A stretch of 64,000 nucleotides of DNA, taken from positions 58,117,233 to 58,181,232 of the forward strand of contig CM046853.1 of the NCBI GenBank assembly GCA_025617745.1. The letters are read 5' to 3'. Below are positions 12,258 through 41,415 of this stretch, piece by piece; within the stretch, counting starts at the first letter, position 1, and every line of letters begins with the position of its first letter. Origin of the DNA: Heliocidaris erythrogramma. Its lineage: Eukaryota > Echinodermata > Echinoidea > Camarodonta > Echinometridae. The notes under the pieces were generated by a model. It worked only from the letters and a program-made list of their open reading frames with translations. It did no database searches and had not been told where the DNA came from. A program made the translations under genes and the position numbers.

Positions 12258-12351
12258 AAGGGTGTCGTAGCCGAGTGGATAAACACTAGACTGGAAATGA
12301 GAGGCTCGTGGGTTCAACCCCCGCTGTGGCACTTATGCCCTTGAGCAAAGT
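12258..12351 (+). repeat. tRNA-Ser-like SINE head (truncated)
   Basis: The sequence reads as a decayed serine tRNA: A-box TAGCCGAGTGG, an anticodon-loop region CTGGAAA (anticodon GGA), B-box GGTTCAACCCC, and acceptor arms GTGTCG and TGGCAC that pair with wobbles. The anticodon stem is poor and the sequence runs on into a SINE-like CTTATGCCCTTGAGCAAAG body, so this is a SINE rather than a working tRNA gene. It abuts the inverted Penelope-like fragment. Confidence 0.7.
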
Positions 12352-12733
12352 ATTGTTCAGCAAATGGAGACCAATCGCTGAATCGCATTTGGCTATCTTT
12401 GGTCTGTTAGCGTGCATTTCAGATTTGCAGGCACGGACGGGCTGCGTGCGCTGATTGGTTGTACGGTTCCGAATAGTCGAGGGGACGTGTTGTTTAATGC
12501 GATCAGTCAACCGCCGAGAAGTACGGCCCACGTACCTGGCATCACACCGGCACTGAAATTGGTAAATAACATTACTCAAGGGGGGGGGGGGGGTAGTACA
12601 TCCTTGCTAGTTGACGGTAGCATCCTGTTTGTAGAAAGCACAATGCGTGTCGAAACCGCGTAATAGCAACGTGACACTGCGTGTTTGATTTGACTGGCGT
12701 ATTTGTCAGATACCTTACCCCTCCAGGGTAGTT
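12352..12733 (-). mobile_element. Inverted fragment of a Penelope-like element (endonuclease region)
   Basis: This stretch is the reverse complement of about 13908-14290, at roughly 95% identity by eye, including the coding part of the GIY-YIG endonuclease and the end of the reverse transcriptase region. A long G-run near 12580 marks a length-variable site. Inverted partial copies near a main copy are a known arrangement of Penelope-like elements. The fragment is broken and non-functional. Confidence 0.88.
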
Positions 12734-12907
12734 ATTCGTTTACGTTTGCTAAACTCGTCCCTGATCGGTAAGCACTATATAGGCACCACTGAGCTCATGA
12801 ATATTCATATCAGAAACCCCTTTTTGAAGACTTTGAAAGATACTAAAAGTTTCAGACTTGTATTTTCTTACTCAGTAACCTTATTTTTAAATCAGCAAAA
12901 GAAAATT

Positions 12908-12990: not shown

Positions 12991-13133
12991 AGCTGCTCGA
13001 TGCTCTTGCTCGTTTTATTATATCCTACAATTCGTTTTCATGAATATTCATGCCGACTAGTTTTGACGGAATAAACCGTATTATTTCCTAAGATGAGCAA
13101 TTTGACGCGATCCAAATCTGACACCAGATTTAT

Positions 13134-14069
13134 GTGTTCATTGTTCATTCGATGTGTTCATTCGATATCTCTAGCCTATTTACCAACGTGCCACTGAAAG
13201 AAGCTATTGACATCTGTGCTTCTTATCTCTATCATGGTGACTTAGACTCACCACCTGTTCCTGAGCCCGTATTCATTGATCTCATGAACTTTGCCACTCG
13301 CGCGGTTGAGTTTAGTTTCAATGATACGATGTATTCACAGATAGATGGTGTGGCTATGGGATCCCCATTAGGCCCCGCGCTTGCTAACATCTTTGTTGGC
13401 TTTCATGAAATGCGCCTGCTACAGAACGCCACCGATCTTAATATAGTCCCACATGTGTATTGTCGGTATGTTGATGATACGTTTGCAATTTTTGATAACC
13501 GCGCAGCGTGTGAGGTTTTCCTTACACAACTGAACCGGCTCCATCCCGCGCTAAAATTCACATGTGAAATTGAACTGTCCAATGCGCTCCCATTTCTCGA
13601 CGTTCTCGTTGAGAGAAGTGATGGGAAATTCATCACTTCCGTCTACCGCAAGCCCACATTCACCGGGCAATACACGAGATGGGACTCGTACAGTGCAACT
13701 TCATACAAGATTGGGCTCATTAGAAACTTAGTGTGCCGCGCCCATAGGATTTGCTCTGCGTGCAAATTAGCTCCCGAAATCGCGAAAATCAAAACTATCC
13801 TCCTTGACAATGGTTACCCTGAGCATGTTATATCTCGCACCATAACACGGACGCTGGAGGCACAATCCAAATCTGACACCAGATTTGGACCTGCCAAATG
13901 CCCCGTGTATCTCAAACTACCCTGGAGGGGTAAGGTATCTGACAAATACGCCAGTCAGATCAAACACGCAGTGTCACGTTGCTATTACGCGGTTTCGACA
14001 CGCATTGTGTTTTCTACACACAGGATGCTACCGTCAACTAGCAAGGATGTACTACCCACCCCCACTTGA
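13134..14069 (+). pseudogene. Penelope-type reverse transcriptase core
   Basis: Visible motifs in order are FDISSLFTNVPL (motif A), GVAMGSPLGPALANIF (motif B), YVDDTFAIF (catalytic Asp pair), LPFLDVLV and VYRKPTFTGQY. This set is diagnostic of Penelope-like elements rather than LINEs or LTR elements. The N-terminal region expected before motif A is absent. In the family the enzyme copies element RNA into DNA at a nick made by the attached endonuclease. Confidence 0.9.
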
Positions 14070-14452
14070 GTAATGTTATTTACCAATTTCAGTGCCGGTG
14101 CGATGCCAGGTACGTGGGCCGTACTTCTCAGCGGTTGGCTGATCGCATTAAACAACACATTCCCTCGATTATTCGGAACCGTACAACCAATCAGCGCACG
14201 CAGCCCGTCCGTGCCTGCAAATCTGAAATGCACGCTAACAGACCAAAGATAGCCAAATGCGATTCAGCGATTGGTCTCCACTTGCTGAACAATCCAGCTT
14301 GCGCACAAAGCTATGCCGACGATCAATTCTCAATTATGTCCCGGGCCAGAAGCTCAGCGCATTTACGCTTTCTGGAAGCTGCTTATATCCAATCGCAAGA
14401 ACCTCTTCTGTGCAGACAAAAGGAGTTCGTCCAAGCTTTGCGATTGTTCTGA
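14066..14452 (+). pseudogene. GIY-YIG endonuclease domain of the Penelope-like element
   Basis: Begins with a Y.F.C.CDARYVGRTS stretch, the PLE form of the GIY-YIG motif with paired cysteines, followed by a conserved R..QH segment and a His-rich, Arg-rich tail ending about 45 residues after LEAAYI. In intact family members this domain is the C-terminus of the reverse transcriptase polyprotein. It is part of the broken copy described above. Confidence 0.88.
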
Positions 14453-14530
14453 AATTACGGCGTCTAGGTTGCGTCCGGGTTCACCGAGTATAATATAGTT
14501 GATTTCAAGTAATTTGTTTTATACCTGCGT

Positions 14531-14568
14531 GATAACCTGATGAGTGCAGGTCGAAAAGCTTCGTTATC
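14531..14568 (+). ncRNA. Hammerhead ribozyme motif (Penelope-associated)
   Basis: Stem I is GATAAC (14531-14536) with GTTATC (14563-14568), flush with CTGATGA (14537-14543) and with the cleavage-site C at 14562. GAAA is at 14553-14556, and the minimal palindromic stem III is AAGCTT. Stem II (14544-14552) pairs poorly, and ACCTGC just upstream (14523-14528) could instead pair with GCAGGT inside it. Type I hammerheads with minimal stem III are known in Penelope-like elements, and the position 80 bases after the endonuclease stop fits. Activity is uncertain. Confidence 0.65.
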
Positions 14569-14599
14569 ATGTCTCTTTTTCGTGCCATATTGAAATTTT

Positions 14600-17624: not shown

Positions 17625-18123
17625 AATGACTAGTTCGGGACAGGCTCCCAGATTACTAGCGTCTCGTCTTACACGTTAGTAAACGGGCCTTATATGCCTA
17701 ATATTGTCAGGTTGGACAAACATTTTGGCCTACCCAACCTAGGCACATTAAATGTATGCAATCTGCATTCTGACTATTGAAATACCACGAATTGTAACAG
17801 GTGGATATGATAGTTCATTACTCGGAGTTTGATAAAGAGGTGAGCATTAAATGTGAATGAATTACGAAAATGGCCTATTTGGTAATGTTTAGTTTTGGTA
17901 CTCCCATCAAAAACTTTTCCTCAGATTTCTTGGATTTTGTTGATAAATAGCAAGATACTAGCAATACTAAGCTGATGTGAAGACTTCACCTCCCAAAGTA
18001 AAATATTTTACAACAGAGAGGTAAAAATTAATTCATATACCGGGCCAGGGATATAAACTAACAAAGACAGCGTGCACTGTACACTATAACGTCACGCGAA
18101 CCCCCGAGACTTGCATGGGGTGG

Positions 18124-18156
18124 CTGATGACGGACAGTCAACCTGTCCGAAACGTC
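18124..18156 (+). ncRNA. Hammerhead-like core
   Basis: CTGATGA (18124-18130) is followed by a perfect hairpin CGGACAG / CTGTCCG with loop TCAAC (18131-18149), then GAAACGTC (18149-18156), giving a palindromic ACGT stem III and a GTC cleavage triplet. The conserved order is that of the hammerheads in Penelope-like elements. One extra base sits at the stem II junction and no matching stem I is visible, so self-cleavage is doubtful. No reverse transcriptase lies nearby, so this may be an isolated element end. Confidence 0.55.
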
Positions 18157-18197
18157 GAGTCTTCTCCACTCTCAGCCTTCTCATCTGGTTTATGTAC

Positions 18198-18233
18198 AGT
18201 CCTTTTCAGGACTTCACACTTGTTCAAGAAAGA
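18198..18233 (+). promoter_or_regulatory. Histone-type mRNA 3'-end signal: stem-loop plus downstream element
   Basis: AGTCCT (18198-18203), loop TTTC, AGGACT (18208-18213) make a 6-bp stem with a 4-base loop, the geometry of replication-dependent histone mRNA ends. Eleven bases later comes CAAGAAAGA (18225-18233), the purine-rich element that pairs with U7 snRNA in sea urchin histone pre-mRNA. No histone reading frame is present nearby. It lies 42 bases after the hammerhead-like core and may belong to that mobile element. Confidence 0.7.
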
Positions 18234-18313
18234 TTAATTTTACATTGTCTTACTTTCTCGCCTTTCCATTTCTTCTCCTCTCAACTTTCTCCATTTTCAT
18301 CTTCTTACTCAAC

Positions 18314-18329
18314 AGTCCTTTTCAGGACT
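18314..18329 (+). promoter_or_regulatory. Second histone-type stem-loop
   Basis: The same 16-base stem-loop (AGTCCT, TTTC, AGGACT) as at 18198, preceded by CAAC and followed by AACCACA, flanks also seen around histone stem-loops. No CAAGAAAGA element follows this copy. Confidence 0.65.
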
Positions 18330-18410
18330 AACCACATGGTGAACCGTAAGCCTCCTCAACGTTATCAGTACCACCATGCAGCCCTCTACCTTCAAAGATC
18401 ATAAGACCCA

Positions 18411-41164: not shown

Positions 41165-41415
41165 CTAAATTTGAAAGTCTTATATTTAAATCTTAAAGAC
41201 TTACTTTTAAATCTAACAGAGACTAATATTAGTGACGAAACCTTTGGGATTTAAAATAAGTCTTTATTAAGACTTAAAATGTTAAAACCACAAAAGACTT
41301 AAAACATAAGTCTTTTAGATTTAAAATTTAAATCTTTTCAGTTTTACCTTTAAATCTTTTTAAGGTTTATTAACAGATAAATCTTTTTGAGATTTAAATT
41401 TTCAGAGGAAGTGGG
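41165..41415. repeat. AT-rich block of AAGTCTTT / TTTAAATCTT words in both orientations
   Basis: The words AAGTCTT, AAATCTTTT and TTTAAATC recur about a dozen times on both strands. The borders (CTCTCTAAATTTGAAA and TTTAAATTTTCAGAG) are partly inverted. It may be a decayed hairpin MITE; family unknown. Confidence 0.45.

What the first reader, a model, noticed from the sequence alone, without database searches (positions are those of the whole stretch)
18124..18329. Hammerhead-like core followed by histone-type mRNA 3'-end signals
Seen: a CTGATGA / stem / GAAACGTC core, then 42 bases later a stem-loop AGTCCT-TTTC-AGGACT with CAAGAAAGA 11 bases downstream, and a second identical stem-loop 100 bases on. 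Known: that stem-loop geometry plus CAAGAAAGA is the U7-dependent 3'-end signal of sea urchin histone genes, and hammerheads occur in Penelope-like elements. Inference: a Penelope-type element may have captured histone 3' ends so that its RNA ends without a poly(A) tail, or the signals come from an old histone locus. I know of no description of this pairing.
Basis: partly seen in the sequence, partly recalled or inferred. Interest (0 to 1): 0.75.

Follow-up and report, generated by a model that had tools for sequence, protein, structure and literature searches.

The report
Jumping gene carrying histone mRNA signals
The spot is one of many copies of the end repeat of a Penelope-type jumping gene that carries, besides its usual small ribozyme, hairpin signals of the kind that end histone messages, and two unrelated jumping genes in the same animal genome carry such signals too, which suggests mobile DNA has borrowed the histone route for finishing its messages.

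Summary
Window 18124-18402 is a short dispersed copy of the pseudo-LTR (pLTR) of a Penelope-like element (PLE): hammerhead, histone-type stem-loop SL1, purine element CAAGAAAGA, second stem-loop SL2, then the start of the PLE reading frame. The first look gave about 1,900 candidate places, of which 40 were scored. Fetching PLEs by the C-terminal end of their protein, not by the stem-loop, recovered the same order in subfamilies A and C; B lacks SL2; D keeps one stem-loop with a compensatory pair change but no purine element after it. The hammerhead is ordinary for PLEs; I found no report of the histone part.

Two unrelated DNA transposons here (Merlin-type and Harbinger-type) carry histone stem-loops just behind their transposase frames, also in relatives 48% and 58% identical. 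Host histone genes carry the same kind of signal, and an SLBP gene is present.

Most likely SL1 in the 3' pLTR lets SLBP/U7-type cleavage give the PLE a poly(A)-free, S-phase-linked mRNA, while read-through RNA serves as template. The anatomy is shown; processing is inferred. Against it: the copies read run past SL1, SL1 lacks the adenine flanks known for SLBP binding, D lacks the arrangement, and U7 was not found.

The parts
18124..18402 (+). Short dispersed copy of a PLE pLTR (subfamily A) ending in the start of the PLE reading frame
   Evidence: Own-genome searches: 62 and 61 match rows, 40 places scored of 1927 and 1891 first-look candidates
18124..18160 (+). Hammerhead core CTGATGA / stem II / GAAA / palindromic ACGT, predicted cut after C18156 (GUC|GAGU); stem I 5' strand lost in this copy
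   Evidence: stem I ACTC/GAGT in longer copies L007, L049, L059 and in L072; stem II changes compensated in subfamilies C and D
18198..18213 (+). SL1, histone-type stem-loop AGTCCTTTTCAGGACT
   Evidence: RF00032 18.4 bits; exact in 19 of 30 A copies; fully paired in 11 of 14 PLE loci that keep this region, of 21 fetched
18225..18233 (+). CAAGAAAGA, purine block like the histone downstream element (HDE)
   Evidence: Exact in 27 of 30 A copies; CACGAAAGA in B and C; both words also behind host histone stem-loops
18314..18329 (+). SL2, second stem-loop of the same sequence
   Evidence: RF00032 18.0 bits; exact in 26 of 30 A copies; AGTCCTTATCAGGACT in C; absent in B
18335..18378 (+). Block CATGGTG...CACCATG, conserved between subfamilies; the shorter 3' end seen in inverted head copies falls inside it (about 18364)
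   Evidence: two 3' ends 38 nt (A) and 35 nt (D) apart; compare the two RT start sites and 30-40 bp tail in PMC11167929
18376..18402 (+). Start of the PLE reading frame (ATGCAGCCCTCTACCTTCAAAGATCAT), the tail of the direct copies
   Evidence: L089 reads MQTFKDHLIQLYGEQTQ... from the corresponding ATG

Best explanation
The segment is a PLE pLTR in which a histone mRNA 3'-end signal sits just inside the presumed transcription start. Shown: order TATA-like box, start-like 5' end of short copies, hammerhead, SL1, purine element, (SL2), ATG of the reading frame; the same block follows the reading frame in the 3' pLTR; a histone-geometry stem-loop is kept in four subfamilies. Inferred: RNA starts in the 5' pLTR and, after the reading frame, meets SL1 plus the purine element in the 3' pLTR, where host SLBP and a U7-type snRNP cut a few bases after SL1. 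This gives a histone-like mRNA without poly(A), translated and stabilised mainly in S phase. The same signal close to the 5' end must be passed over, as retroviruses pass their 5' poly(A) site (recalled analogy). RNA that escapes cutting in the 3' pLTR is the template, because reverse transcription of PLEs starts inside the RNA, beyond SL1/SL2.
For: PLE linkage: L072 has a GIY-YIG domain (PF01541, E 3.8e-6), then a pLTR with TATA-like box, hammerhead, SL1, purine element, SL2, ATG. L089 and L071 look like the two ends of one B element (matching target duplication AATATTTATAGT; middle not read), with SL1 and CACGAAAGA at both ends. Sampling by protein: 21 loci fetched, 14 keep the region, 11 of these 14 have a fully paired SL1, 9 of the 11 also have the purine element. 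Conservation between A, B and C: hammerhead 43/43, 39/42, 39/42 identical of aligned bases; SL1+HDE 46/49, 43/47, 43/47; RT-start block 34, 35, 32 of 40; spacer between HDE and that block 57/76, 76/101, 61/77. Subfamily loops TTTC, TCTA, TATC fit UHUH; in D the 4th stem pair changes C-G to T-A on both sides. No AATAAA/ATTAAA in the A, B and D segments tested. Host: 11 core-histone loci, CAAGAAAGA behind the stem-loop in 9, TAAGAAAGA in L010, CACGAAAGA in L034; SLBP domain in two pieces on C16. Parallels in Merlin (8 of 8 close loci and 2 of 2 relatives) and Harbinger (5 of 7 loci, 2 relatives).
Against: No RNA data. The copies read that reach this far run past SL1 and SL2, so their templates were uncut. 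SL1 lacks the flanks reported for full SLBP affinity, two adenines 5' and one 3' (PMC10388802 passage): it has TTTAC and TCAC; SL2 and D have AAC and A. D has no purine element after its stem-loop (it lies upstream) and a non-canonical SL2; B has no SL2. First stem pair is A-U, not G-C; scores are far below Rfam's cut-off. If the 3' hammerhead cut first, SL1 would be lost from the mRNA (in PAc, though, unprocessed RNA dominates). U7 was not found with RF00066 (no control genome rang) or with a recalled sea-urchin-like pattern. The SL covariation is one pair only; 27 of 500 shuffles reach the score. In the parallels AATAAA lies behind the stem-loop in Harbinger L036 (twice) and Merlin L093, so poly(A) use there is not excluded.
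Confidence: 0.48

Rival explanations
1. The stem-loops are SLBP-type hairpins that work in the 5' leader. After the hammerhead trims the cap, SL1/SL2 recruit SLBP or a similar factor for translation, stability or localisation of an uncapped RNA; there is no histone-type 3' cleavage.
For: They lie between ribozyme cut and ATG; one full-length B copy starts one base after the predicted hammerhead cut, so hammerhead-trimmed RNA may get copied; templates keep SL1/SL2; D keeps a covarying stem-loop without a purine element behind it.
Against: Does not explain the purine element 7-11 nt after SL1 in A, B and C, nor that Merlin and Harbinger carry the signal behind the coding frame.
Confidence: 0.22
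2. The hairpins are the PLE's own structure (binding site of its protein, or support for the ribozyme) and resemble histone stem-loops by convergence or chance.
For: RF00032 scores under cut-off; stem differs from host histones at the first pair; SL1 lacks the adenine flanks; PLE protein is known to act on RNA of the pLTR-ORF junction (PMC11167929).
Against: The subfamily forms stay within the histone rule (G-C second pair, pyrimidine 5' arm, U-A top pair, UHUH loop) in A to D; 0 of 200 shuffled windows gave SL plus purine element; in PAc templates starting at +20 of the ORF are still active; the window's other PLE has a hammerhead-like core but no such stem-loop.
Confidence: 0.2
3. The signals come from an old, decayed histone gene cluster next to an unrelated ribozyme.
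For: None beyond the motif itself.
Against: The whole 279-bp unit recurs on many contigs, with target duplications in some copies, next to PLE reading frames; no core histone match in 55 of 55 loci checked.
Confidence: 0.02

Closest known systems
Penelope/Poseidon-type PLE, e.g. PAc of the anole (PMC11167929: main-text section read in full, other parts as passages)
   Same: pLTRs, hammerhead, GIY-YIG reading frame, two 3' ends some 30-40 bp apart
   Different: No histone-type signal is described there ('histone' occurs 0 times). Here the ATG lies about 220 nt after the ribozyme cut and the two 3' ends at about -12 and +27 of the ATG; in PAc the cut is 26 bp after the start codon and RT starts 111-118 bp into the ORF
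Replication-dependent histone mRNA 3' end (SL plus HDE; RF00032)
   Same: 6-bp stem, 4-base UHUH loop, G-C second pair, purine block CAAGAAAGA 11 nt behind
   Different: First pair A-U; SL1 without adenine flanks; lies in a retroelement, in two copies, and also ahead of the reading frame; score under Rfam cut-off
Metazoan retrozymes with type I hammerheads (PMC7229834: passages seen)
   Same: Short, non-coding, dispersed, hammerhead-bearing
   Different: Those are short tandem repeats of 150-450 bp; here single units with an RNA start-like 5' end and PLE tail
Merlin-type (IS1595-like) and Harbinger-type DNA transposons of this same genome
   Same: Mobile genes with histone-type stem-loop behind the coding frame
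   Different: DNA transposons; stems GGCTCT (Merlin) and GGCCCT (Harbinger), the latter with an AGTCCT-type stem-loop before it in the main family

Membership tests
Penelope-like element | GIY-YIG endonuclease at the protein's C-terminal part | tested here: met
   L072:1-219 PF01541, 27.5 bits against cut-off 22.6, E 3.8e-6; the cut piece in L071 scores 14.6 bits, under cut-off
Penelope-like element | Reverse transcriptase in the same frame | not tested
The window's other PLE has RVT_1, 29.8 bits against 29.6
Penelope-like element | Optional 30-40 bp 3' tail and inverted heads | tested here: met
   Ends at q about 241 (inverted) and 279 (direct) in A; 442 and 477 in D
Penelope-like element | Minimal hammerhead lacking helix III | tested here: met
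   GAAAC-GUC with palindromic ACGU (ACGCGU in D); PLE hammerheads usually lack helix III (PMC6155905 passages)
Active hammerhead ribozyme | Self-cleavage at GUC| | not testable with these tools
   One full-length copy starts 1 base after the predicted cut, consistent only; one extra pyrimidine sits between CUGAUGA and stem II
Histone-type mRNA 3' end | RF00032 above gathering score | tested here: not met
   18.4 and 18.0 bits versus 34
Histone-type mRNA 3' end | 6-bp stem, UHUH loop, G-C second pair, purine element close behind | tested here: met
   A, B, C: element 7-11 nt behind SL1; not met for the purine element in D
Histone-type mRNA 3' end | Two adenines before and one after the stem-loop (SLBP affinity) | tested here: inconclusive
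   Not met at SL1, roughly met at SL2 and in D (AAC before, A after) (rule from PMC10388802 passage)
Histone-type mRNA 3' end | RNA ends 4-5 bases behind the stem-loop, no poly(A) | not testable with these tools
   No RNA data
Metazoan retrozyme | Head-to-tail tandem repeats | tested here: not met
   In 30 of 30 loci with about 1.5 kb flanks, extra copies of the query, where present, were inverted

The most novel reading that the evidence does not exclude
In this animal lineage the histone mRNA 3'-end pathway is a shared resource of mobile DNA: a Penelope retroelement, a Merlin and a Harbinger transposon have each acquired histone-type stem-loops, so that their transposition proteins are made from poly(A)-free, SLBP-controlled messages in S phase or from maternal stores in early embryos. 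Histone mRNAs would then not be the only animal mRNAs of this kind.
Probability: 0.45. Interest if true: 0.92.

Novelty: new variant of a known kind. Interest (0 to 1): 0.8.

Why it matters
[quoted passage not shown] Mobile elements that end their messages the same way would tie transposition to DNA replication and to the histone supply of the early embryo, would be missed by poly(A)-selected RNA-seq, and could help explain how PLE messages end, since the A, B and D pLTR segments tested hold no AATAAA/ATTAAA. Acquisition in three unrelated element types would be a striking convergence and is directly testable by 3'-end sequencing.

Tried and rejected
Rfam at gathering threshold found nothing in the window; the stem-loops appear only in a lax search. 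U7: RF00066 gave no match and no control genome rang; a pattern recalled from sea urchin U7 gave none. Old histone locus rejected. Retrozyme rejected (no tandem copies). Host identity not established: one paper search listed 8 papers, mostly genome notes, none opened; no listed abstract gives a 1.06 Gb genome. Literature on mobile elements with histone-type ends: six searches; four gave 0 papers, two gave 11 and 9 listings whose titles and abstract starts were on other subjects; none of these was opened. Only the open PMC library was searched. More distant Harbinger relatives L097-L100: no such stem-loop in 4 of 4.

Full report
What is there. In 200 dinucleotide shuffles of the window only 6 stem-loops of this consensus appeared in all and none had the purine element; the real window has three, one of them (41259) elsewhere and without the element. 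Rfam sees both SLs as Histone3 over the whole model, but at 18 bits against a cut-off of 34.

It is a repeat. Searching the window's own genome (1.06 Gb, 26 contigs, no name given) with the segment gave 62 match rows, 40 places scored of 1927 first-look candidates, and 61 rows, 40 of 1891, with 18124-18402. I took the best 30 loci. They share a unit from (ACTC)CTGATGA to CTTCAAAGATCAT(C). Likely target duplications: 10-11 bp in L004, L062, L069 and, outside an inverted head, L005; 8 bp in L058 and L070; for the other 24 of 30 I accept none. Exact words in these 30: hammerhead core 17, SL1 19, CAAGAAAGA 27, SL2 26, all four 6; many misses in the alignment are single changes. L045 (this window) and L046 are a duplicate pair, so independent loci number 29.

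It is the pLTR of a PLE. In L056 a PLE reading-frame end lies upstream of a second copy of the unit, inverted to the first. Searching with that 60-aa end gave 150 matches (150 scored of 1081 candidates). I fetched the 3' side of 21 of these loci without regard to the stem-loop (L071-L088, L090-L092). Fourteen keep the SL1 region; in 11 of the 14 SL1 is fully paired, wobble pairs allowed (L071, 072, 073, 076, 077, 078, 079, 082, 083, 087, 091), in three it is damaged (L075, 086, 088). Nine of the 11 keep the purine element (not L073, L079); SL2 is present in six loci (L072, 077, 078, 082, 083, 087). The other seven are truncated, deleted there, or of subfamily D. L076 and L078 have a CTTC loop, outside the UHUH rule; I take them as decayed copies. 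None of 55 PLE loci checked holds a core histone match, against 17 rows in the control loci L009-L038.

Anatomy. L072 reads: GIY-YIG frame (PF01541, E 3.8e-6), spacer, ACTTATACC (TATA-like), about 28 nt to TCACTC, hammerhead, SL1, purine element, pyrimidine-rich spacer, SL2, CACATGGTG...CCACGTTAT, CACCATG. Many short copies begin at or 1-3 bases before CTGATGA, where a TATA-driven start would lie (inference). The 3' end is q279 in direct copies and about q241 in inverted heads, a 38-nt difference; subfamily D shows 477 and 442. PMC11167929 (section 3 read in full) explains the 30-40 bp PLE tail by two internal reverse-transcription starts; there they lie 111-118 bp into the ORF, here at about -12 and +27 of the ATG. 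L089 shows that the tail is the start of the reading frame, MQTFKDHLIQLYGEQTQ.... L089 and L071 look like the ends of one element (middle not read): 5' end AGTAACC, the predicted hammerhead product GAGTAACC less one base, and target duplication AATATTTATAGT. This is one copy; in PAc the authors found no reads at the hammerhead cut and unprocessed RNA was the main substrate.

Ribozyme. Stem I is ACTC/GAGT in long copies, absent in the window copy. GAAACGUC has no helix III loop; ACGU is self-complementary, so two units could pair. Stem II changes are compensated: GGACAG/CTGTCC (A, B), GGGCAG/CTGCCC (C), GAACAG/CTGTTC (D). An extra pyrimidine follows CUGAUGA. Minimal hammerheads without helix III are usual in PLEs (PMC6155905 passages), so this half of the finding is known.

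Stem-loop evidence across subfamilies. A: AGTCCT-TTTC-AGGACT twice. B: once. C: AGTCCT-TCTA-AGGACT and AGTCCT-TATC-AGGACT. D: AGTTCT-TTTC-AGAACT (L101; L102 with a G-U top pair; L103 with one base lost; L092 lost it). These loops fit UHUH and the only double change in the stem is compensatory (7 distinct rows, 27 of 500 shuffles reach the score, so modest). Identity between A-B, A-C and B-C: hammerhead 43/43, 39/42, 39/42; SL1+HDE 46/49, 43/47, 43/47; reverse-transcription start block 34/40, 35/40, 32/40; spacer between HDE and that block 57/76, 76/101, 61/77; stretch between hammerhead and SL1 18 bases in A against 91 and 102, and 59/82 between B and C. Against: in D the purine word CGAAAGATTAC lies before, not after, the stem-loop, and the SL2 place has a 5-bp stem with 8-base loop; SL1 has TTTAC before and TCAC after it, not the two 5' adenines and one 3' adenine that PMC10388802 gives for full SLBP affinity, while SL2 and D have AAC and A.

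The host and two other elements. RF00032 in the whole genome gave 75 matches (75 scored of 193,525 candidates), 73 over the cut-off. Of the 30 loci read, 11 have core histone genes (L009, 010, 014, 015, 026-029, 031, 032, 034). Their stems are GGCTCT, with GGTCCT behind the H2B gene of L026; behind the stem-loop stand CAAGAAAGA in 9, TAAGAAAGA in L010 and CACGAAAGA in L034, the two main PLE words included. Eight others have a Merlin-type transposase (PF12762, E 1.3e-23) ending just before GGCTCTTTTCAGAGCC and, in most, CAAGAAAGA (L013 has CAATAAAGA). Sampling Merlin by its C-terminus gave 11 rows: 8 loci at 93% or more (one with a second row at 78%), all 8 with an over-cut-off RF00032 hit behind the frame, and two 48% relatives, L093 and L094, ending in GGCTCTTTTGAGAGCC...CAAGAAAGA (loop TTTG, outside UHUH). 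Four loci (L035-L038) hold a Harbinger-like transposon (PF13359 in L036, E 1.8e-12) with tandem stem-loops, in L036 AGTCCTTTTCTGGACT and GGCCCTTTTAAGGGCC behind the transposase, and further ones on the opposite strand in L035-L037. Its C-terminus gave 39 rows: of the 7 loci at 73% or more, 5 have RF00032 hits and two with shorter matches (C14, C18) are not in that scored list and were not read; four of the five carry stop codons in this stretch. Of the rest I read six: the 58% relatives L095 and L096 keep GGCCCTTTTAAGGGCC; L097-L100 have none in the 281-341 bases read. AATAAA lies behind the stem-loop in L036 (twice) and L093. The remaining seven RF00032 loci (L011, 012, 016, 019, 024, 025, 033) matched neither the histone nor the Merlin query. 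An SLBP RNA-binding domain is present in two pieces on C16. U7 was not found by two weak methods.

How it most likely works. I infer U7/SLBP-type cutting after SL1 in the 3' pLTR for the protein-coding message, and use of uncut RNA for reverse transcription. A leader function and a purely PLE-internal function remain open. The SLs form in the predicted minimum-energy fold of the L072 leader (z -3.7), where the ribozyme core can also pair with the reverse-transcription start (UGAUGACG/CGUUAUCA), a possible switch (speculation).

Literature. Six searches for mobile elements with histone-type ends gave nothing or listings on other subjects, within open PMC papers only. PMC7229834 was seen in passages and PMC10388802 in passages. 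PMC12803260 (abstract) reports that in C. [quoted passage not shown]

Noticed in passing
L039:7497-8950 (C7:48713.5k-48714.95k); L013, L017, L018, L020-L023, L030; relatives L093, L094: A Merlin-type (IS1595-like) DNA transposon whose transposase frame is followed at once by a host-type histone stem-loop and, in most loci, CAAGAAAGA; all 8 close loci found by its C-terminus have the stem-loop, and both 48% identical relatives keep stem-loop (loop TTTG) and purine element.
   Followed up: partly
L035-L038, L095, L096: A Harbinger-type transposon with tandem histone stem-loops behind its transposase and, in L035-L037, more on the opposite strand; a stem-loop is kept in two 58% identical relatives but absent in the four more distant ones read.
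   Followed up: partly
window 13122-14569: A second PLE (RVT_1 and GIY-YIG in Pfam) with its own hammerhead-like core at about 14531-14568 (GATAAC CTGATGA ... GAAA AGCTTC GTTATC, palindromic AAGCTT) and apparently an inverted piece of itself upstream (about 12330-12750, by eye); no histone-type stem-loop near it.
   Followed up: partly
L072:647-935: In the predicted fold the ribozyme core UGAUGACG pairs with CGUUAUCA at the reverse-transcription start, so ribozyme folding and template use could exclude each other.
   Followed up: no
L007, L047, L059 (oriented copies, about 35 bases before CTGATGA): Some short copies begin right at the TATA-like ACTTATACC instead of at CTGATGA, a second preferred 5' end that I cannot explain.
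   Followed up: no
window 18110-18410 and C1:57861287-57861587: A 100% identical copy with the same near flanks lies about 274 kb away, a local duplication; over 3,279 bases compared without gaps only 1,840 positions agree, so it is broken by insertions or ends nearby.
   Followed up: partly
window 41259-41274: A third stem-loop of histone consensus, AGTCTTTATTAAGACT, without purine element; 0.03 expected per window.
   Followed up: no
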